Shown here one piece after another: positions 1 through 6,957 of a DNA stretch of 6,957 nt. The stretch's first letter is position 1; each line of letters starts with the position of its first letter. The translations under genes and the position numbers were made by a program. This stretch comes from Candidatus Thorarchaeota archaeon SMTZ1-83 (lineage in GTDB: Archaea; Asgardarchaeota; Thorarchaeia; Thorarchaeales; Thorarchaeaceae). Where the stretch lies: contig LRSK01000070.1 in assembly GCA_001563325.1 (NCBI GenBank), positions 1 through 6,957 on the forward strand, in the 5' to 3' direction. A model generated the notes under the pieces. The model made no database searches and was not told the origin of the DNA. It saw nothing but the letters and a program-made list of their open reading frames with translations.

Positions 1-24
1 GCAGAGGCGAACGGAAAGAGATGA
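1..24 (+). CDS. Possible 3' end of an upstream gene (partial, seven codons)
   Basis: Reading from base 1 gives seven sense codons (AEANGKR) and then TGA at 22-24. That stop overlaps the ATG of the radical SAM gene as ATGA, the classic arrangement of translationally coupled genes in an operon. Genes further along this window also overlap or abut, so an upstream gene ending here is plausible. Seven codons cannot identify a product or prove coding. It could be a RiPP precursor, another modifying enzyme, or a chance open stretch. Frame 2 is also open across the edge but runs well into the radical SAM gene, which makes it less likely to be real. Confidence 0.25.
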   Translation, partial: AEANGKR

Positions 25-1349
25 AGCAAGAGTTATTCTTCGATGCCGACACCTTGGTCATTCAGAGAAGAGGAGATTTTTGGGTGTACAGTCCTTCTAC
101 GCAAAGATGGTTCAAGACAAATGAGCTGGCGGCGACGTTGATCAAGCAGCTCATTGAGGCACAAGGAAGGGTTCGCATAGATATGATGGCAAAGAAGGTC
201 TACAGGAAATATCACGTTGAGTTGACTAGCATCGAAATCCAGGAAATGACGCGGAATCTACTCAGAACAGGTGTGTTTTTCCCATGTCGGGACAGTCTGT
301 ACGCCTCTGTCCAAGACAGTCGCACTTTCCGCGAGATTCCCAAAGACACGCCGCTAAGAATAGCCTATCTTCACTTTACACACAGATGCAATTTCAATTG
401 CTGGTACTGTTATAACAGAGGGATTACTAAAGACTCATCTTCCGAGTTAGACTGCGCCGAATGGATAGGCATTATAGAGAAACTGAAGGCAGCCAAGGTG
501 GAAGAGTTTGTCATCACTGGAGGAGAGCCTCTGCTGAGAGCTGACTTGCATCAAATCCTGTCCGAAGCTTGGTCCGCTGGTATTCATTTCACTCTCCTCA
601 CCAATGGAAGTCTGTTGAATGGAGACACAATCGAGCGACTGAGCACGGTCGTTGATAGATTCGTGATGAGTTTTGACGGTTTCAGCAGAAACGCTTACGT
701 CGAGAATGGCGCTCCCACACGACAGCACAATGTCTTGACGGCACTGAAACTGCTTTCTCAACGCAGTCCAGAAAAGGTGCACGTGCGCACTGTGATAACG
801 AAAAGAAATGTTCACGAGATCGAGTACGTGAGAATGAGACTTAGAGAAGACTATGGCATTACCAACTACACCACGACGATCTTCTTGCCCAATTCTGTGC
901 ACGAAATAGATTTGATACCAAGCATCTCTGGTGATTACACATTCAGCGATCAATTCGCAGCAGCGTACGAACCGGACGTCAACAGACTAAAATGTGGCGG
1001 TGCTACCAGTATAATCGCTGTTGACTGTAGAGGCTGCGTCTATCCGTGTCAAAACTTCCTTGAAGAGGATGAATTCAGGATTTGCTCCATGTTGGATGAC
1101 AGTTGGCAACAAGAATTCCTGTCTTCGGAAACCAGGGAGATCTTCAGAAGCCTTTCCGTGGATGACGTCAGAATCTGCAGAGATTGTCCCTATAGATACC
1201 TCTGTGGAGGCGGATGTCCTGCAATCTCTTGGCACGTTTACCGCGATCTCCGAAGCCATCTACCGTTCTTGTGCAAATATTTAAGAAGGGTGGCGGTGGA
1301 AAGAATAGTGAGCACAAGAACGAAAGAAGTGTACAGGATTCTGCGGTGA
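21..1349 (+). CDS. Radical SAM/SPASM peptide maturase with N-terminal PqqD-like domain
   Basis: This 442-residue enzyme is predicted to bind a 4Fe-4S cluster that cleaves S-adenosylmethionine, plus auxiliary clusters, to modify a peptide or protein in the cytoplasm. Residues about 10-95 look like a PqqD-type winged-helix domain, the RiPP recognition element that binds leader peptides (pattern around WVYSPSTQRWFKTNELAA). The radical SAM core follows, with CNFNCWYC supplying C123, C127 and C130, and ITGGEP at 165-170. The C-terminal SPASM pattern is complete: C325-X12-G-X4-C343, then C386-X2-C389-X5-C395-X3-C399, then C418. C336, C339 and C355 are extra. The ATG at 21 is chosen because the PqqD-like domain starts almost at once and a GGAAAG stretch lies just upstream. 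SPASM enzymes with a fused PqqD-like domain typically make thioether, C-C or epimerised RiPPs. The exact reaction cannot be read here. A non-peptide SPASM role is possible but fits the PqqD domain poorly. Confidence 0.93.
   Translation: MKQELFFDADTLVIQRRGDFWVYSPSTQRWFKTNELAATLIKQLIEAQGRVRIDMMAKKVYRKYHVELTSIEIQEMTRNLLRTGVFFPCRDSLYASVQDSRTFREIPKDTPLRIAYLHFTHRCNFNCWYCYNRGITKDSSSELDCAEWIGIIEKLKAAKVEEFVITGGEPLLRADLHQILSEAWSAGIHFTLLTNGSLLNGDTIERLSTVVDRFVMSFDGFSRNAYVENGAPTRQHNVLTALKLLSQRSPEKVHVRTVITKRNVHEIEYVRMRLREDYGITNYTTTIFLPNSVHEIDLIPSISGDYTFSDQFAAAYEPDVNRLKCGGATSIIAVDCRGCVYPCQNFLEEDEFRICSMLDDSWQQEFLSSETREIFRSLSVDDVRICRDCPYRYLCGGGCPAISWHVYRDLRSHLPFLCKYLRRVAVERIVSTRTKEVYRILR
1335..1338 (+). promoter_or_regulatory. 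Possible ribosome binding site for an alternative GTG start of the ABC gene
   Basis: AGGA lies seven bases before an in-frame GTG at 1346-1348, which overlaps the radical SAM stop as GTGA. If used, it would couple the two genes and add eight residues to the exporter. The ATG at 1370 has no comparable motif at the right distance. Family N-termini nevertheless favour the ATG, so the choice is open. Confidence 0.35.
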
Positions 1350-1369
1350 AAAGTAGAAATCGAGACACC

Positions 1370-3079
1370 ATGCATGTCACCATCAGTGGTTACATCGCCA
1401 GATATAGATTCCGAATACTTGTGCTGATAGCCCTTGTCCTGTTGCAGTCTTTGTTTGCCTTTGCCATACCGATTATCGTTAGAGTTTCGCTGAGCAGCAT
1501 TCAACTTGGGGATATGTCGAATACATGCTTCGTCTGTTTCTTTCTCGTCTTGTTGGGTGCCTACCTCACGACGATGGGATACCACTTGTTCTTACTTAGG
1601 TTTTCCCTGGTCTTCAAACATAACGAACTGAAACGGCTATTTGAAGATCTCTTCCGGGCAAGACTCTCCCGCGTTCAAGAACTGGGGCCTACGTACTTCG
1701 CCCACAGGATACTAACAGCGGGCAGCAATTTCTTCAGCCTCATAGGAGACTCTTTTCCAAAAGCACTCGTTGCAGGGTTGGTGATCATTATCTCGCTCGG
1801 TCTTATCCTCTCTCTGAACAAGTTCGTTTTCTTGCTGTTTCTCGTCTTGATTCCTGTGAGCTATCTCAGTTACAGGAGATTGAATATGACACTCCAGAAA
1901 AAGAGCGATCAATTGCAGAGTGTGAGTGCACATAATATCAAAAATGTCATAGGCGTCGTCCAGAACCTTGAAGAAATCAAGCATCTATCCAACTACCACG
2001 TCTTTTCGGAACTCACAGGCCGGTACCTGTACGACCTCGAAAGAGCCAATGCAGATGTTGGCCGATATGCCCATCTGTTATCAACCACGATTCAGTTTTC
2101 GATCAGTCTGATCAGGAATGGGGTATTATTTCTTACGATCTATTACTTCTTAAGCAGCCGAATGGTATTTGCCGATATGATGTTTGTGAATCTCATCTTC
2201 TCAATCTACTTCACTGCTCTCTCCGAGCTGAATGGCATCAACATATGCAAGAGAGACACCGATGCATCTCTGGGTTTCGTCAACAGGGAAATTATCGCAC
2301 ATCGAGAAACTGACGCGGGAAGGGAAACCCTTGCATCCGTGGATCAACTGGCTTTCTATATCAAGCACTTTGCCTACACTCCTGGACAGGATATTCTGAG
2401 AGACATAAATTTGCAGATCAAGAAGGGTGACAGAATAGCCATTGTTGGCCACGTAGGTTCCGGAAAGACCACGTTGGTGAAGCTTCTGATGCGGTATCAC
2501 AACAATGGGGACAGCATTTCAATCAACGGAGTACCACTCTCTCTCTACACATTAGATAGTCTTAGAAGCAAGATCTACATCGTCCCACAACGTCCTCACT
2601 TGTTTCCTGGCAACATAAGAGACAACATAGTCGTTGGACTGAACAACGTGTGCAAGAAAAGACTCGACCGTGTCATAAGCCTGCCCTTCTTCTCCAGCTT
2701 CATCAGGGAGCTTCCCCTTGGCTTGGAAACGAAGGTAGGAGAGGACGGGTTTAGCTTGTCAAGTGGGCAGAAGCAGAAAATAATGATGGCCAGATTGCTC
2801 ATGCATGATCCAGAAGTGATAATCTTGGACGAATCGAGTTCATGTATGGACAGTTACTCTGAAACCGCCATCTATCACGCCATAGAAACACTTGGAAAAG
2901 ACAGAATAACGATAAGAATATCCCATAGGATGTCGACCATAAAGGACGCCAATACAATTGTCGTTCTAAGCCGCGGCAGAATAGTGGCTTCGGGTACGCA
3001 CCAACATCTACTGGCCACCTCGAGAGAATACAGAGAGCTATTCTCACCCCAACTGATTTCACAATTATGGAACAAGTAG
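1370..3079 (+). CDS. ABC exporter half-transporter (membrane domain fused to ATPase)
   Basis: This 569-residue inner-membrane protein is predicted to work as a dimer that pumps a substrate, here probably the modified peptide, out of the cytoplasm. The first ~290 residues hold about six hydrophobic segments (near 15-37, 51-75, 132-150, 151-167, 247-262 and 265-285). The ATPase domain fills about 325-560: Walker A GHVGSGKT (360-367), Q-loop Q407, signature LSSGQ (463-467), Walker B VIILDE with catalytic E488, D-loop SSCMD and switch H519. All catalytic residues are present, although the signature is LSSGQ rather than LSGGQ and the D-loop SCMD replaces the usual SALD. There is no N-terminal C39 peptidase domain, so it would not cleave a leader itself. 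The start is uncertain: the ATG at 1370 places the first helix at a normal distance, while GTG at 1346 is the main alternative. Lipid or drug exporters share this architecture, so the substrate is inferred from context. Confidence 0.92.
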   Translation: MHVTISGYIARYRFRILVLIALVLLQSLFAFAIPIIVRVSLSSIQLGDMSNTCFVCFFLVLLGAYLTTMGYHLFLLRFSLVFKHNELKRLFEDLFRARLSRVQELGPTYFAHRILTAGSNFFSLIGDSFPKALVAGLVIIISLGLILSLNKFVFLLFLVLIPVSYLSYRRLNMTLQKKSDQLQSVSAHNIKNVIGVVQNLEEIKHLSNYHVFSELTGRYLYDLERANADVGRYAHLLSTTIQFSISLIRNGVLFLTIYYFLSSRMVFADMMFVNLIFSIYFTALSELNGINICKRDTDASLGFVNREIIAHRETDAGRETLASVDQLAFYIKHFAYTPGQDILRDINLQIKKGDRIAIVGHVGSGKTTLVKLLMRYHNNGDSISINGVPLSLYTLDSLRSKIYIVPQRPHLFPGNIRDNIVVGLNNVCKKRLDRVISLPFFSSFIRELPLGLETKVGEDGFSLSSGQKQKIMMARLLMHDPEVIILDESSSCMDSYSETAIYHAIETLGKDRITIRISHRMSTIKDANTIVVLSRGRIVASGTHQHLLATSREYRELFSPQLISQLWNK

Positions 3080-4911
3080 TCGAACTGCTAGAGCACAGGT
3101 GTAAAGACGACCATCCGTTGAACACAATCGCCAGAATAAGGCAGATTATCCAGTCTCTTGGTATTCTGACAGTAGAAGATGAATGGAAGAACCCTCTGAC
3201 AGGTTTTCACTCAGTGAGTCTCAAAATCGCTCACACCAGTGTAAGAGTGAATGGAAAAGGAGTCACTCCTGAGTATGCTTTGGCGAGCGCCTACGGAGAG
3301 TTCATGGAGCGATTACAGAATCAGGCGCTGTTCCACTTTGACCGTGACTTCGATGAAACAGTGACCGATCATCTCAGTTTCCATCACTCGCCGGACGAGA
3401 AATGGTTGAGAATGGATGAACTGCGCGGAGAAATGCCTGATAGTATGTGTGACGTATTCAAACCTTCCGATTGGTCCGATGATGCAAATCTTAACTATCT
3501 GAACGAATTCTGCTCGGCTCAGGATACACGCGGTGTGAGCGATTTCTTAGTCATTCCCTATCATAGTGTAAATGCCGATTCATTGGTTTACCTGCCTCTG
3601 CTGTTCGTGAGGCATTTTTACGGTTCAAATGGGATGTCTGCAGGAAACACCGCTGAAGAGGCCCTCGTTCAGGGTCTATGTGAGATATTTGAAAGATATG
3701 CAAATAGGGAGATTCTCTCAGGCAAGATCACTCCTCCGACAATTCCCAAATCGCACCTCAAGAGATGTCGAGAGCAATATGCAATGATTCAGCGCTTGGA
3801 GTCTTTGGGATTTCAGGTGGTAGCAAAAGACTGTTCGATTGCCCGTGGTCTTCCTGTTGTAGCCTTGGTTTTCATACACAGCAAAACGAAGAAATACTTT
3901 GTCAAGTTTAGCTCACATCCATTCCTCCAGATAGCATTGGAGAGATGCCTTCTTGAATTCGTGCAGGGTGCGGATCTCAATGACACGCAAAGATTCCGTC
4001 CGTTTCAATACCTGTCAGCTGGTAACAGAATTGGCAATACCAGAAGAAATCTCTACACGATTTTTACAACAGGTGAAGGGTGTTATCCTAGCTCGCTGTT
4101 CAGTGACAGGTCCACTTACCCGTTCAATGAATCCGTATTCAAGGTCTTCTCCGGGAATGCGGGGATTCTGGACTACCTGATTGGATCTGTCAGACGGAGT
4201 GGGTTTGACGTGATAGTACGAGATGTCTCATTCTTGGGCATTCCGAGTTACCATGTGATCGTGCCTGGTCTTTCTGAAGTGTTCTCTTACAACAGAATGG
4301 AATTTAGGAGCATTGCCATTGGGCGTAGAGTAAGGAGAACAATCAGAAGTCTGGGGACTTGTACTGAGGACGATCTGAGAACCGCAGTTGAGTATCTGGA
4401 ACAACATTTCTCAGACGAGAAGTCAATTGCTGAACTCACTGGTTTGCCGGTGAGAGAAGCTTTCCCTTGGAGAAACCTCAAGTATGGAATGTTCTTGTCT
4501 GCTGCACTGTATCGGCTCAACGATCTCGCGCGTTCTCGAGAATACATAGAGAGGTATATAAGCTATCGCCAATCCCACAGCAAGGAAGACGATATGGGAA
4601 CCGTCTACTACAAGTGCATCCGAGACTATCTGGCAATCCTTTCGGAAACCGGCAGTGTTGAGAGAGCGTGTACGATTCTGCTTCCAATATACGGAGAGAA
4701 TCTCGTGAAGGAGATTATTGATGATCTGCGAGACCCTCAAAGTGTGCTCAGTCGGCACGGGACGGTGGCGTGCTGGAACTGCCGAGCATGCCATCTCGAA
4801 GAGCATTGCAGTTATCGGAGAATTAAAGACCTGCAGATCAAATTGAAGGATCGTATGGCACAGAATCCACTGGATCAGTCAAGTCTGAGCAACATCTTCT
4901 CTTCCAGATGA
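3067..4911 (+). CDS. YcaO-domain ATP-dependent amide-activating protein, E. coli YcaO-like
   Basis: YcaO enzymes use ATP to phosphorylate a backbone amide, giving azolines, thioamides or amidines. The 614 residues resemble E. coli YcaO (about 586) from memory, e.g. NGKG near 62-65, ALASAYGEFMER (71-82), NGMSAGNT (188-195), VQGLCEIFERY (201-211) and ALERCLLEFVQG (290-301). Residues matching the ATP/Mg ligands known in E. coli YcaO appear intact: E78, E81, S191, N194, E206, E209, R293 and E297. The region about 430-560 is probably helical, like the TPR-like C-terminal part of that branch. Unlike E. coli YcaO as recalled, the tail has a cysteine cluster (C569, C572, C575, C581). The C-terminus lacks the PxPxP motif of azoline-forming YcaOs. 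No E1-like or TfuA partner is in the window. The ATG overlaps the exporter's end by 13 bp without a visible ribosome binding site, suggesting coupled translation. E. coli YcaO is linked to ribosomal protein S12 methylthiolation, but the SPASM/exporter context favours a dedicated peptide substrate (inference). Confidence 0.93.
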   Translation: MEQVVELLEHRCKDDHPLNTIARIRQIIQSLGILTVEDEWKNPLTGFHSVSLKIAHTSVRVNGKGVTPEYALASAYGEFMERLQNQALFHFDRDFDETVTDHLSFHHSPDEKWLRMDELRGEMPDSMCDVFKPSDWSDDANLNYLNEFCSAQDTRGVSDFLVIPYHSVNADSLVYLPLLFVRHFYGSNGMSAGNTAEEALVQGLCEIFERYANREILSGKITPPTIPKSHLKRCREQYAMIQRLESLGFQVVAKDCSIARGLPVVALVFIHSKTKKYFVKFSSHPFLQIALERCLLEFVQGADLNDTQRFRPFQYLSAGNRIGNTRRNLYTIFTTGEGCYPSSLFSDRSTYPFNESVFKVFSGNAGILDYLIGSVRRSGFDVIVRDVSFLGIPSYHVIVPGLSEVFSYNRMEFRSIAIGRRVRRTIRSLGTCTEDDLRTAVEYLEQHFSDEKSIAELTGLPVREAFPWRNLKYGMFLSAALYRLNDLARSREYIERYISYRQSHSKEDDMGTVYYKCIRDYLAILSETGSVERACTILLPIYGENLVKEIIDDLRDPQSVLSRHGTVACWNCRACHLEEHCSYRRIKDLQIKLKDRMAQNPLDQSSLSNIFSSR

Positions 4912-4941: not shown

Positions 4942-6957
4942 GTGAATAGTATCACTGGTAAGCTCAGAGCGTTTGCAGGGACTCTGCCAATAATCGCCGG
5001 CGGGTTAGCCTGGACTTCTACTTGTAGTCAGGCATCATCTGTTGAGATAAACGAAATAGTCCTCCCTATGGTCGTGCCTGAGTCAACAGTGATAGATGGA
5101 AGCCTCACGGAACCATTCTGGACACGGGGCGCAGGAATCGATGAATTTGTGGAGGTTCTGCCAAGAGAGGGCGTGAGACCACCGGTCAATACGCGAGTTT
5201 GGCTGCTGCACGACGGTGAGAGTATCTATATTGGTTTCGTCTGTTACGAACAGAACATTTCCCGAGTCAGAGCTACTCTGGGAGACAAAGACCATTTGGA
5301 TAATGACGACTACGTCGGACTTCTTCTTGATACTTTCGATCAACTGCAGAGCGCCTACAAATTCGCTCTGAATCCCTGCGGTGTCCAAGTCGATGGGATT
5401 TTCTACCCCTGGGGAGAAACAGATCTCACTTTTGACACTCAGTGGGAAGGGAAGGCCCGCGTCTTGACAGATAGATGGGAAGCGGAGATCAAGATTCCCT
5501 TCAGCAGCATTGACTTCCCTGCCAAAGACGAACAGCACTGGAGGTTATACCTTGGCCGCACTCGTCCCCGGAAGTCGGTAGAGGAATATGCGTGGCCCTC
5601 GATCTCTCTTGATAAATCGGTTTTCTCTCAGCTTGGACATCTGTACGTGACAAGCAAAATCAGCTGGCAGGGAGCAATGGAGTTCCTGCCGTCCATGGTC
5701 GTTTTCCAAGGACGTTCTCTTATCGAAGAAGAATCTTCTCGGGATATTAGGAATCAACCTCTAGTTGTCAAGACTGGTGTGACAGGAGAATATGCGCCTC
5801 GCTCTGATCTCAACTTCGATTGGGCGATAAACCCGGACTATGCACAGATGGAAACTGATGCTCCTCAGCTAGATGTCAATACCACCTTTGCACTATTCTA
5901 TGCAGATAAGAGACCGATATTTATGAAAGGAAGTGATATATTTGAGTGCCCGGTTGATGTTGTTTACACACGTTCCATGAATGACCCAGCCTTTGTACTT
6001 AAATTTACCAGTAGATTAGGGAATACTTCTCTTGGACATATAATTTCCTATGACAAACATACGCCCTGGATTGTACCTTTTAGGCAGTACAGTTTTGCGC
6101 TCAAGAGCGAGAGGACGTCCCTGTCCAACATAGTCAGAATCCGACAGTCCGTTGGCGAGGATTCTTATATCGGAGGCCTTGCCACATCTCGTGAATTGAG
6201 CAATGGTTTCAGCCGCGTGGCAGGCGTGGATGGCAGTGTAGAATTTCTAAAGAACTGCGTCCTCAATTTTCAGCTACTCAAATCCTGGTACAAGGAGCCT
6301 CTCGACGCCAAGCTATTCAGCGGATATCACCAGCTCAAATTCAGCAAGCATACGTCCGCTTTCGACGGTGAGCGTTTCGATGGATTGGCATACACAATCA
6401 ACTTGTCTCGATGTGCACGAATGCTGAATTTCGGTTTCTCGACCACCGCATTTTCTCCAACCTTCAGAGCAGATAATGGATTTGTGAATAAGAACGACTA
6501 TATTGACATTGGGGGCTGGACCAGTCTTCGATTCGTCATCAATAATGGAGCTTTCGAGAGTGTTGTCCCTCAGATAAACGTTCTCCGAAGAACTGATTAT
6601 GCTGGCAGTTTCTGGAAAGATCACGTATGTTCTGCTCTTGCTGTGAGCTTTATCCGGCAAACCTATTTGGACCTATTCTGCACTCTGTCAAGAGAGGTAC
6701 ATCAGGAAATTGAATTCAGCAGCGTGTGGACGGTGGATGCACGGCTGAGTACGGATTTCAGCAAGGTTCTCTCAGGAGGAATTCGGTGCGAGTTCGGCAA
6801 ATTGATAGACTATTGCGCGCTTCCCCCTGCTCTCGGAAGCGTCAACAACAGCGGTTTGTGGTTTTCCCTTAGGCCCACAACACAATTCGGTTTAGGACTG
6901 GATGCAGAAAGATACTGGCTCTGGGACAGTAATAGCAAAGAGGTTTACGATGTAACT
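4942..6957 (+). CDS. DUF5916-type secreted/outer-membrane protein with CBM9-like N-terminal domain (3' partial)
   Basis: An unbroken frame of 672 codons runs from GTG 4942 to the window edge with no stop, so the C-terminus is missing. Residues 1 to about 32 form a signal peptide: basic K7 and R9, a hydrophobic stretch near 10-25, and likely cleavage after SQA. Residues about 50-240 match the CBM9-like fold that opens this family: IDGSLTEPFW (51-60), DNDDYVGLLLDTFD (120-133) and NPCGVQVDG (144-152). The family hallmark follows at about 294-334 (INPDYAQMETDAPQLDVN, then RPIFMKGSDIF). Members I recall usually read FFLEG where this one has FMKG. The rest shows alternating polar and hydrophobic strands typical of an outer-membrane beta-barrel. 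The molecular function of DUF5916 is not established; binding or passage of a glycan, peptide or other ligand is possible. It lies 30 bp after the YcaO gene with its own ribosome binding site and no terminator between, so co-transcription is likely. It could be a surface receptor, an outer-membrane export partner, or an unrelated neighbour. Confidence 0.85.
   Translation, partial: MNSITGKLRAFAGTLPIIAGGLAWTSTCSQASSVEINEIVLPMVVPESTVIDGSLTEPFWTRGAGIDEFVEVLPREGVRPPVNTRVWLLHDGESIYIGFVCYEQNISRVRATLGDKDHLDNDDYVGLLLDTFDQLQSAYKFALNPCGVQVDGIFYPWGETDLTFDTQWEGKARVLTDRWEAEIKIPFSSIDFPAKDEQHWRLYLGRTRPRKSVEEYAWPSISLDKSVFSQLGHLYVTSKISWQGAMEFLPSMVVFQGRSLIEEESSRDIRNQPLVVKTGVTGEYAPRSDLNFDWAINPDYAQMETDAPQLDVNTTFALFYADKRPIFMKGSDIFECPVDVVYTRSMNDPAFVLKFTSRLGNTSLGHIISYDKHTPWIVPFRQYSFALKSERTSLSNIVRIRQSVGEDSYIGGLATSRELSNGFSRVAGVDGSVEFLKNCVLNFQLLKSWYKEPLDAKLFSGYHQLKFSKHTSAFDGERFDGLAYTINLSRCARMLNFGFSTTAFSPTFRADNGFVNKNDYIDIGGWTSLRFVINNGAFESVVPQINVLRRTDYAGSFWKDHVCSALAVSFIRQTYLDLFCTLSREVHQEIEFSSVWTVDARLSTDFSKVLSGGIRCEFGKLIDYCALPPALGSVNNSGLWFSLRPTTQFGLGLDAERYWLWDSNSKEVYDVT

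What the first reader, a model, noticed from the sequence alone, without database searches (positions are those of the whole stretch)
21..4911. Compact operon pairing a PqqD-fused SPASM radical SAM enzyme, an exporter and a YcaO protein
Seen: three adjacent same-strand genes with overlaps or short gaps, and with all expected catalytic motifs. Known: radical SAM and YcaO enzymes co-occur in bottromycin and thiopeptide biosynthesis and in methanogen McrA modification, but there with radical SAM methyltransferases or other classes, and YcaO usually has a TfuA or E1-like partner. Inference: this is a RiPP or protein-maturation system in which backbone amide activation and SPASM-type crosslinking act on one substrate. 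I do not recall this exact gene set as a characterised class.
Basis: partly seen in the sequence, partly recalled or inferred. Interest (0 to 1): 0.75.

Follow-up and report, generated by a model that had tools for sequence, protein, structure and literature searches.

The report
Peptide-modifying operon with radical-SAM and YcaO
Three neighbouring genes encode two enzymes and an exporter that most likely cross-link, backbone-modify and secrete a small Cys/Gly-rich peptide; the same set seems to recur in other organisms, and a similar system was already worked out in a gut bacterium, so this is a new version of a known kind of natural-product pathway.

Summary
A SPASM radical SAM enzyme (21-1349) with a PqqD/RRE-like N-terminal fold, an ABC exporter without a peptidase domain (1370-3079) and a YcaO protein (3067-4911) form a tight operon. 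A DUF5916-like gene follows, and an upstream ORF is cut off by the contig end. Three other metagenome contigs appear to carry all three genes (inferred from matching contig lengths), and two clostridial loci (L002, L013) have relatives of both enzymes side by side. Relatives of the rSAM gene sit beside small C-x-C...Gly-rich peptides (9 of 20 loci; 0 in 208 kb of their far flanks); 2 of 10 scanned weakly match streptosactin precursors. The reading is a RiPP pathway: the rSAM cross-links the peptide, probably by Cys thioethers, the YcaO changes a backbone amide (thioamide or amidine), the ABC protein exports it. The YcaO looks optional: no YcaO was found in the draft genomes of three close rSAM-ABC relatives. 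New are the probable precursor type and a C-terminal Cys4 motif on an E. coli-type YcaO, absent from E. coli YcaO itself.

The parts
1..24 (+). C-terminal tail of an upstream ORF (frame 1 reads AEANGKR*), its TGA overlapping the rSAM ATG (ATGA); possibly the precursor gene, cut off by the contig end
   Evidence: translation, sequence; identity of the ORF is inference
21..1349 (+). radical SAM/SPASM peptide maturase, 442 aa
   Evidence: nearest solved structure CteB 5wgg by sequence profile and by fold
54..266 (+). N-terminal PqqD/RRE-like winged helix (residues 12-82: three strands, three helices)
   Evidence: predicted structure; no PF05402 hit
387..410 (+). radical SAM CX3CX2C motif (CNFNCWYC)
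   Evidence: C123 invariant, C127 and C130 at least 90% conserved in 43 rows
993..1274 (+). SPASM region, seven Cys (325, 343, 386, 389, 395, 399, 418)
   Evidence: five invariant, two at least 90% conserved; Pfam SPASM 18 bits, below its cut-off of 21.5
1370..3079 (+). ABC exporter (membrane + ATPase domains, 569 aa, no C39 peptidase domain found)
   Evidence: nearest relatives P0242-P0248
3067..4911 (+). YcaO enzyme with YcaO_C domain, 614 aa, E. coli YcaO type
3286..3312 (+). YcaO ATP-site motif SxxxExxER (residues 74-82)
   Evidence: S74, E78, E81, R82 invariant in 26 rows; assignment to the ATP site is recalled
3940..3966 (+). YcaO motif ERxxxExxQ (residues 292-300)
   Evidence: R293, E297, Q300 invariant and E292 at least 90%
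4771..4809 (+). C-terminal CX2CX2CX5C motif (residues 569-581); possible Fe-S or Zn site
   Evidence: 117 of the 120 listed homologues, window included; no CX2CX5C in E. coli K-12 YcaO
4942..6957 (+). DUF5916-like gene, incomplete at the contig end; possible outer-membrane protein of the same operon
   Evidence: (PF19313 20.7 bits, below cut-off 22.6), 30-nt gap; role is inference

Best explanation
A RiPP maturation and export operon. A short precursor, encoded just upstream and lost at the contig end (inferred), is bound by the RRE-like domain of the rSAM enzyme (fold predicted, binding inferred). The SPASM rSAM abstracts a hydrogen from the core peptide and forms cross-links, most likely thioethers from the Cys residues of a C-x-C segment to residues of a Gly/Ser/Ala-rich tail (inferred; about 60%). 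The YcaO enzyme uses ATP to activate one backbone amide and replaces its oxygen, most likely with sulfur (thioamide, about 40%) or nitrogen (amidine, about 30%), without a TfuA or E1 partner. The ABC protein exports the product, and the DUF5916-like protein may help it across an outer membrane (weak).
For: Operon and motifs. RRE-like fold; CteB as best solved relative. rSAM, ABC and YcaO rows with equal contig lengths on three other contigs, against 0 or 1 coincidences in each control comparison; the members of contig 6392 are the window's sisters in the rSAM and YcaO trees and the best ABC relative. C-x-C/Gly-rich peptides within 1 kb of 9 of 20 family loci vs 0 in 208 kb of far flank; StsA hits for 2 of 10 peptides scanned, E 3.2e-5 and 4.6e-5. 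Relative L002: peptide-rSAM-YcaO-S41 peptidase-ABC; L013: YcaO-rSAM-peptide-PqqD. YcaO pI 6.46, against 4.38 for E. coli YcaO. Itf precedent.
Against: No precursor-like ORF in the window. Of 80 rSAM-centred genome loci only 2 have this YcaO in the fetched flanks, many of which are cut by contig ends, and no YcaO was found in draft genomes G001, G003 and G004 of close rSAM relatives, so joint action on one peptide is not general. In the trees the rSAM/YcaO pairing is not clustered more than shuffled labels. StsA similarity is below the curated cut-off, and 8 of 10 peptides gave no hit better than E 0.02. The window rSAM is below the cut-off of each of the 25 NCBIfam families listed (of 95), so homology does not fix the bond type. 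YcaO genes of L166, L167, L168, L169, L192 and L195 have no A1-profile rSAM in the fetched stretch.
Confidence: 0.75

Rival explanations
1. The YcaO is a cyclodehydratase that turns the Cys residues of the C-x-C core into thiazolines, with the rSAM acting on other residues.
For: Azoline formation is a known YcaO reaction (PMC13063428 introduction passage); the precursors of L002 and L013 have C-x-C cores near a YcaO gene. Nostatin A joins azoles and a sactionine bond in one molecule, though its authors doubt that an rSAM makes that bond (PMC11583998 passages).
Against: No E1-like or dehydrogenase gene in the window; the SagD-type model TIGR03604 scores 58.3 bits against a 219.25-bit cut-off. 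The nearest YcaO of known function makes a thioamide and the nearest gene-set precedent an amidine. The related YcaO of L168 sits with two peptides that lack a C-x-C core.
Confidence: 0.18
2. Not a RiPP: the two enzymes mature a cellular protein or a cofactor peptide, as E. coli YcaO does with uL16, and the ABC protein is a bystander.
For: E. coli YcaO and a methanogen YcaO modify proteins (PMC13063428). No precursor-like ORF is visible in the window.
Against: Small peptides flank rSAM relatives. The YcaO is not acidic and is below the NF040716 cut-off (293.4 vs 700 bits).
Confidence: 0.12
3. The rSAM-ABC pair makes one product and the YcaO gene is an unrelated neighbour.
For: rSAM-ABC pairs without YcaO in L001, L003 and L004, in whose draft genomes no YcaO was found. 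YcaO genes without an A1-profile rSAM in the fetched stretch in L166, L167, L168, L169, L192 and L195.
Confidence: 0.04

Closest known systems
itf pathway of Bacteroides thetaiotaomicron (ItfA, B, D, E, F)
   Same: SPASM/twitch rSAM, ATP-dependent YcaO (described as fused to an [Fe-S]-recognition domain), ABC exporter, outer-membrane transporter gene (PMC11002830 passage)
   Different: ItfE has a C39 peptidase and ItfF is a TonB transporter; here the ABC has no peptidase domain and the last gene is DUF5916-like. ItfA ends in Ile-Thr-Phe; the precursor here is unseen and those of rSAM relatives are C-x-C/Gly-rich. ItfB itself was not fetched, so whether its YcaO is of this subfamily is not tested.
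Streptosactin and the StsA/StsB (GggA/GggB) sactipeptides
   Same: SPASM rSAM beside a small Cys/Gly peptide; peptides of L003 and L013 match StsA weakly; the L013 rSAM scores 215.7 bits to StsB
   Different: Window rSAM 97.3 bits against a 625-bit StsB cut-off; the streptosactin cluster is described with precursor, rSAM, protease and regulators (PMC8172795 passages; YcaO not mentioned in that paper)
CteB and SCIFF-type maturases
   Same: Best solved relative by profile (155.5 bits) and by fold (E 9.5e-20, TM 0.70)
   Different: 88.1 bits against a cut-off of 425 for TIGR03974
E. coli YcaO (uL16 thioamide synthase)
   Same: YcaO plus YcaO_C architecture; best solved relative (209.7 bits; E 9.9e-32, TM 0.77/0.82); acts in vitro with ATP, Mg and sulfide (PMC13063428)
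   Different: pI 6.46 rather than 4.38, and a C-terminal Cys4 motif that E. coli K-12 YcaO lacks; operon with a peptide maturase and an exporter
TfuA-YcaO thioamidated RiPPs
   Same: YcaO plus, in some actinobacterial clusters, a SPASM rSAM and standalone PqqD (PMC8120280 passages)
   Different: No TfuA among the window's ORFs
Nostatin A
   Same: A sactionine bond and YcaO-type azole chemistry in one peptide (PMC11583998 passages)
   Different: A lanthipeptide-like dehydration may give its bond, per the authors; other enzymes and precursor

Membership tests
RiPP biosynthetic gene cluster | precursor peptide gene next to the enzymes | tested here: inconclusive
   none in the window; the contig starts 20 nt before the rSAM; an ORF tail AEANGKR* overlaps its ATG; precursor-like peptides at 9 of 20 related loci
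RiPP biosynthetic gene cluster | RRE/PqqD-like domain for leader binding | tested here: met
   as a predicted three-strand, three-helix N-terminal fold; no Pfam PqqD hit; binding not tested
itf pathway | SPASM rSAM plus YcaO in one operon | tested here: met
itf pathway | ABC exporter with C39 peptidase domain | tested here: not met
   only ABC membrane and ATPase domains of an exporter found
itf pathway | TonB-dependent transporter gene | tested here: not met
   DUF5916-like gene instead; the contig ends inside it, so beyond is unknown
itf pathway | precursor ending Ile-Thr-Phe | not testable with these tools
   precursor not in the contig
StsB streptosactin maturase (NF045574) | score over the curated cut-off of 625 bits | tested here: not met
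   97.3 bits
SCIFF maturase (TIGR03974) | score over the curated cut-off of 425 bits | tested here: not met
   88.1 bits
SPASM-domain radical SAM enzyme | CX3CX2C plus the seven-Cys SPASM pattern (pattern recalled) | tested here: met
   but Pfam SPASM model 18 bits, below its 21.5 cut-off
YcaO superfamily | PF02624 over cut-off and conserved motifs | tested here: met
   174.8 vs 25.7 bits; motifs
E. coli-type YcaO acting on uL16 (NF040716) | over the 700-bit cut-off and acidic pI | tested here: not met
   293.4 bits; pI 6.46 vs 4.38 for E. coli YcaO
TfuA-YcaO thioamide synthase | adjacent or fused TfuA | tested here: not met
   no TfuA hit in the four ORFs scanned; beyond the contig unknown
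Linear azol(in)e peptides (SagD type, TIGR03604) | score over 219.25 bits and an E1-like partner | tested here: not met
   58.3 bits; no partner in the four ORFs scanned

The most novel reading that the evidence does not exclude
A RiPP class in which a Cys-Gly peptide receives both radical-SAM thioether cross-links and a backbone thioamide made by a partner-free, E. coli-type YcaO whose C-terminal CX2CX2CX5C site holds an Fe-S cluster that binds the substrate or supplies the sulfur, in place of TfuA.
Probability: 0.15. Interest if true: 0.75.

Novelty: new variant of a known kind. Interest (0 to 1): 0.42.

Why it matters
It links the E. coli-type YcaO branch, recently shown to thioamidate a ribosomal protein, to what look like secreted peptides, and gives concrete precursor-enzyme pairs (L002, L013) for testing what such YcaO enzymes do. 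If the Cys4 site is an Fe-S cluster involved in sulfur or substrate handling, it could explain how they work without TfuA. The chemistry of the pair cannot be read from homology, so the product could be a new bond combination.

Tried and rejected
Searching for the host: no whole genome is held. P0132 in 23 genomes of one archaeal phylum at E<=1e-40: 0. The rSAM profile in 247 genomes of the phylum of G001 at E<=1e-70: 1, G001 itself; in 347 of the phylum of G006 at E<=1e-80: 0. The viral scan for the rSAM gave only weak relatives (best E 1e-15) and none with this YcaO in the flanks; the viral scan for the YcaO gave one locus beside phage-like genes.

Rejected: membership of StsB, SCIFF, SagD and NF040716 (cut-offs not met); 'PqqD-fused' as a Pfam fact (no hit), kept only as a predicted fold; a precursor inside the window (none of 103 ORFs of 20 aa or more fits the pattern). 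In the trees the rSAMs next to a YcaO, and the YcaOs next to an rSAM, are not one clade and are not more clustered than shuffled labels (3 changes, 207 of 500 shuffles as low; 4 changes, 233 of 500); several rows have long branches. Bacteroidales genomes were searched to reach ItfB itself: 6 genomes, 0 hits; PF02624 in 295 genomes, 5 hits of which 3 were fetched and 1 (L192) is of this YcaO family; 3 genomes, 0 hits; 399 genomes, 2 hits. None could be shown to be ItfB. Nine paper searches listed no paper that I could recognise as describing an E. coli-type YcaO with a C-x-C sactipeptide-like rSAM system; the library lacks most subscription papers. Of the papers used I saw passages (PMC10352776, PMC11002830, PMC8172795, PMC8120280, PMC11583998) or abstract, outline, passages and section 30 (PMC13063428). 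The Clark and Seyedsayamdost atlas was not read, nor Data Set 3 of PMC13063428, which is said there to list RiPP neighbourhoods of this YcaO group.
Full report
WHAT IS THERE. The window holds an rSAM gene (21-1349), an ABC gene (1370-3079) and a YcaO gene (3067-4911) on the + strand, 20 nt apart and 13 nt overlapping, then after 30 nt an incomplete DUF5916-like gene from 4942. By its database entries the window is a contig of 6957 bases. Its first 24 bases read AEANGKR* in frame 1, with the TGA overlapping the ATG of the rSAM gene, so another reading frame ends there and is cut off. GC content is even over the four genes, 0.46-0.48. No Rfam match.

THE PROTEINS. The rSAM has the CX3CX2C motif and a complete seven-Cys SPASM pattern (the pattern is recalled), though the Pfam SPASM model scores 18 bits, under its 21.5 cut-off. 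In 43 aligned rows these Cys are invariant or at least 90% conserved. The predicted structure (mean pLDDT 90.1) starts with three strands and three helices, the make-up that PMC10352776 gives for an RRE (passage), although no PF05402 match was found. The best solved relative by profile and by fold is CteB; SuiB, SkfB and TigE follow by fold. The ABC protein has Walker A, Q-loop, signature, Walker B and H-loop motifs and no peptidase domain was found. The YcaO protein is closest among solved structures to E. coli YcaO and keeps the conserved YcaO motifs. It has a C-terminal CX2CX2CX5C motif, present in 117 of the 120 listed homologues, window included, and absent from E. coli K-12 YcaO. Among 12 YcaO proteins of the fetched loci, 5 have it in full (L013, L161, L166, L167, L195) and 2 only CX2CX5C (L169, L192); L002, L168, both of L181 and L196 have neither, so it is not tied to the rSAM pairing. 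Its CX2CX5C part has the spacing of C386-C389-C395 of the rSAM. Whether it binds Fe-S or zinc is not tested; ItfB is described as fused to an [Fe-S]-recognition domain.

IS THE SET CONSERVED? The protein database gives no neighbourhoods, so I compared contig lengths. Lengths 6392, 5889 and 9901 each occur for a family rSAM, a family ABC and a YcaO; 5486 for rSAM and YcaO; 5124 for rSAM and ABC. Of 42 family rSAM rows, 4 share a length with the 119 YcaO rows; of 77 lower rSAM rows, 0 do. Of 7 family ABC rows, 4 match a family rSAM and 3 a YcaO; the 109 typed lower ABC lengths match 1 family rSAM (5262) and 0 YcaO; the 77 lower rSAM rows match 1 of all 116 ABC lengths (5846). This is inference from lengths; the contigs were not read. 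Among the listed ABC hits the score falls from 414 to 225 bits after P0248 (only the 7996 candidates sharing most words were scored). In the rSAM and YcaO trees the proteins of contig 6392 are sisters of the window's (100/98 and 95/85).

GENOMES. Of 80 genome loci fetched by the rSAM profile, 2 have a YcaO of this family in the fetched flanks, L002 and L013; none of the 80 viral loci does. L002 reads peptide, rSAM, YcaO, S41 peptidase, ABC. L013 reads YcaO, rSAM, peptide, standalone PqqD. Close rSAM relatives in L001, L003 and L004 have an ABC gene nearby (498, 240 and 307 bits to the ABC profile) but no YcaO in the flanks, and no YcaO was found in those genomes (4 of 13 genomes searched have one: G002, G005, G007, G009; the records call L001, L003 and L004 MAGs, so they may be incomplete). 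So a peptide-rSAM-ABC core seems to stand alone and the YcaO looks like an addition. Starting instead from the YcaO: 4 of 291 genomes of one clostridial class (E<=1e-100), 6 of 150 of the family of G002 (E<=1e-50), 2 of 399 of the family of G1069 (E<=1e-25), and L192 from the PF02624 search of 295 genomes. Of these 13, 7 have an A1-profile rSAM in the fetched stretch (G002, G009, G613, G650, G666, G714, G1435). G002 and G009 were known from the rSAM scan; without them it is 5 of 11, and those five rSAM sets are distant (67-90 bits to A1, against 212 or more for L002 and L013 rounded down from 392.5 and 211.3; my family line was 200). For the L181 protein at 12199-13608 Pfam shows a radical SAM domain but no SPASM at E 0.01; the L196 rSAM has a CX2CX5CX3C segment. 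L161 (viral scan), cut just before its YcaO, is left out of the 13. L168 of Clostridium hydrogenum has a B12-binding rSAM, PqqD, ThiF and M50 genes.

SUBSTRATE. Small ORFs beside family rSAM genes share a C-x-C segment and a Gly-rich tail, for instance ...TRACQCLCSGLGGGAGGEK (L001)...FELHCLCGLSSGSGS (L002)...MEACACACGSKVGHGSGAMIS (L003)...MACACLCALGGSGSGAAAAVK (L013). With a fixed pattern, 9 of 20 family loci (200 bits or more to the A1 profile) have such an ORF within 1 kb (12 ORFs in 38.6 kb), against 0 in 208 kb of their far flanks; for the 60 more distant rSAM loci it is 1 of 60 near and 9 ORFs in 581 kb far. The pattern was written after seeing peptides, so the near count is not independent; the far count is a fair background. 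Of 10 peptides scanned, those of L003 and L013 match NCBIfam StsA (streptosactin precursor) at E 3.2e-5 and 4.6e-5, 23.8 and 23.3 bits against a 42-bit cut-off; the L002 peptide has only E 0.078 to a related model. Streptosactin carries Cys-Ser and Cys-Gly alpha-thioethers (PMC8172795 passages). No such ORF lies in the window, as expected if the gene is upstream; the AEANGKR tail is compatible with the tails of relatives but proves nothing.

MECHANISM. Shown: gene order, domains, motifs, predicted folds. Inferred: recurrence on the metagenome contigs; precursor binding by the RRE-like domain; thioether cross-linking by the rSAM; exchange of one backbone oxygen by the YcaO; export by the ABC protein. 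E. coli YcaO makes a thioamide on uL16 from ATP, Mg and sulfide, and members of its network group that are not highly acidic lie in contexts that suggest RiPP biosynthesis (PMC13063428: abstract, passages, section 30). The window YcaO has pI 6.46, and those matched to rSAM contigs 6392, 5889, 9901 and 5486 have 8.9, 7.13, 6.98 and 8.66, against 4.38 for E. coli YcaO; but the 120 listed homologues have a median of 5.56 and L013 has 5.6, so pI is a soft guide. ItfB makes an amidine (PMC11002830 passage). Hence thioamide about 40%, amidine 30%, azoline 18%, the rest other; these odds are judgement.

AGAINST KNOWN SYSTEMS. The itf pathway has the same enzyme pair with an ABC exporter and an outer-membrane transporter (discussed also in PMC10352776), so the gene set is a known kind. 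Bacteroidales locus L196 shows a parallel order in this YcaO family: GG-leader peptide with a CAC segment, rSAM, YcaO and a large ORF that looks like an outer-membrane protein (that last reading is mine). The window fails two tested itf features (C39 peptidase, TonB gene) and is not StsB, SCIFF, SagD or the uL16 YcaO by cut-off. It works like itf, with probable StsA-like substrates.

VERDICT. A RiPP-type operon that seems to recur; new variant of a known kind; interest 0.42.

Noticed in passing
L166:8079-8420 (opposite strand ORF at L162:1128-1445): Next to a clostridial YcaO (926.8 bits to A2) lies a 9-bp-repeat stretch that reads in one frame as SM/NAM triplets and in others as Cys-rich repeats; a possible repetitive substrate, or a repeat without a gene.
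   Followed up: no
L168:6723-18328: Clostridium hydrogenum cluster with a YcaO of this family, B12-binding rSAM, PqqD, ThiF and M50 genes and two small peptides without a C-x-C core; looks like another RiPP type.
   Followed up: partly
L181-L184: Four genomes of the family of G002 carry two YcaO genes each with three distant rSAM-profile hits; in L181 an ORF with a Nif11-like leader and GG site lies nearby (my reading of the sequence).
   Followed up: partly
L196:6742-12450: Bacteroidales locus: GG-leader peptide ending ...QQETCACDAIG, rSAM, YcaO of this family and a large ORF that looks like an outer-membrane protein.
   Followed up: partly
L161:1-1827: A YcaO of this family at the end of an IMG/VR contig followed by what look like phage genes; probably host DNA beside a prophage.
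   Followed up: no
P0004: 921-aa protein with two YcaO-like segments in tandem on a 4030-base contig; a fusion or an assembly join.
   Followed up: no
window 4942-6957: DUF5916-like gene 30 nt after the YcaO stop, probably the same operon; its link to peptide export is untested.
   Followed up: no
(P0055, P0132): Sources name Theionarchaea for a YcaO and an rSAM of these families, so the pair may also exist in archaea; contigs not seen.
   Followed up: no
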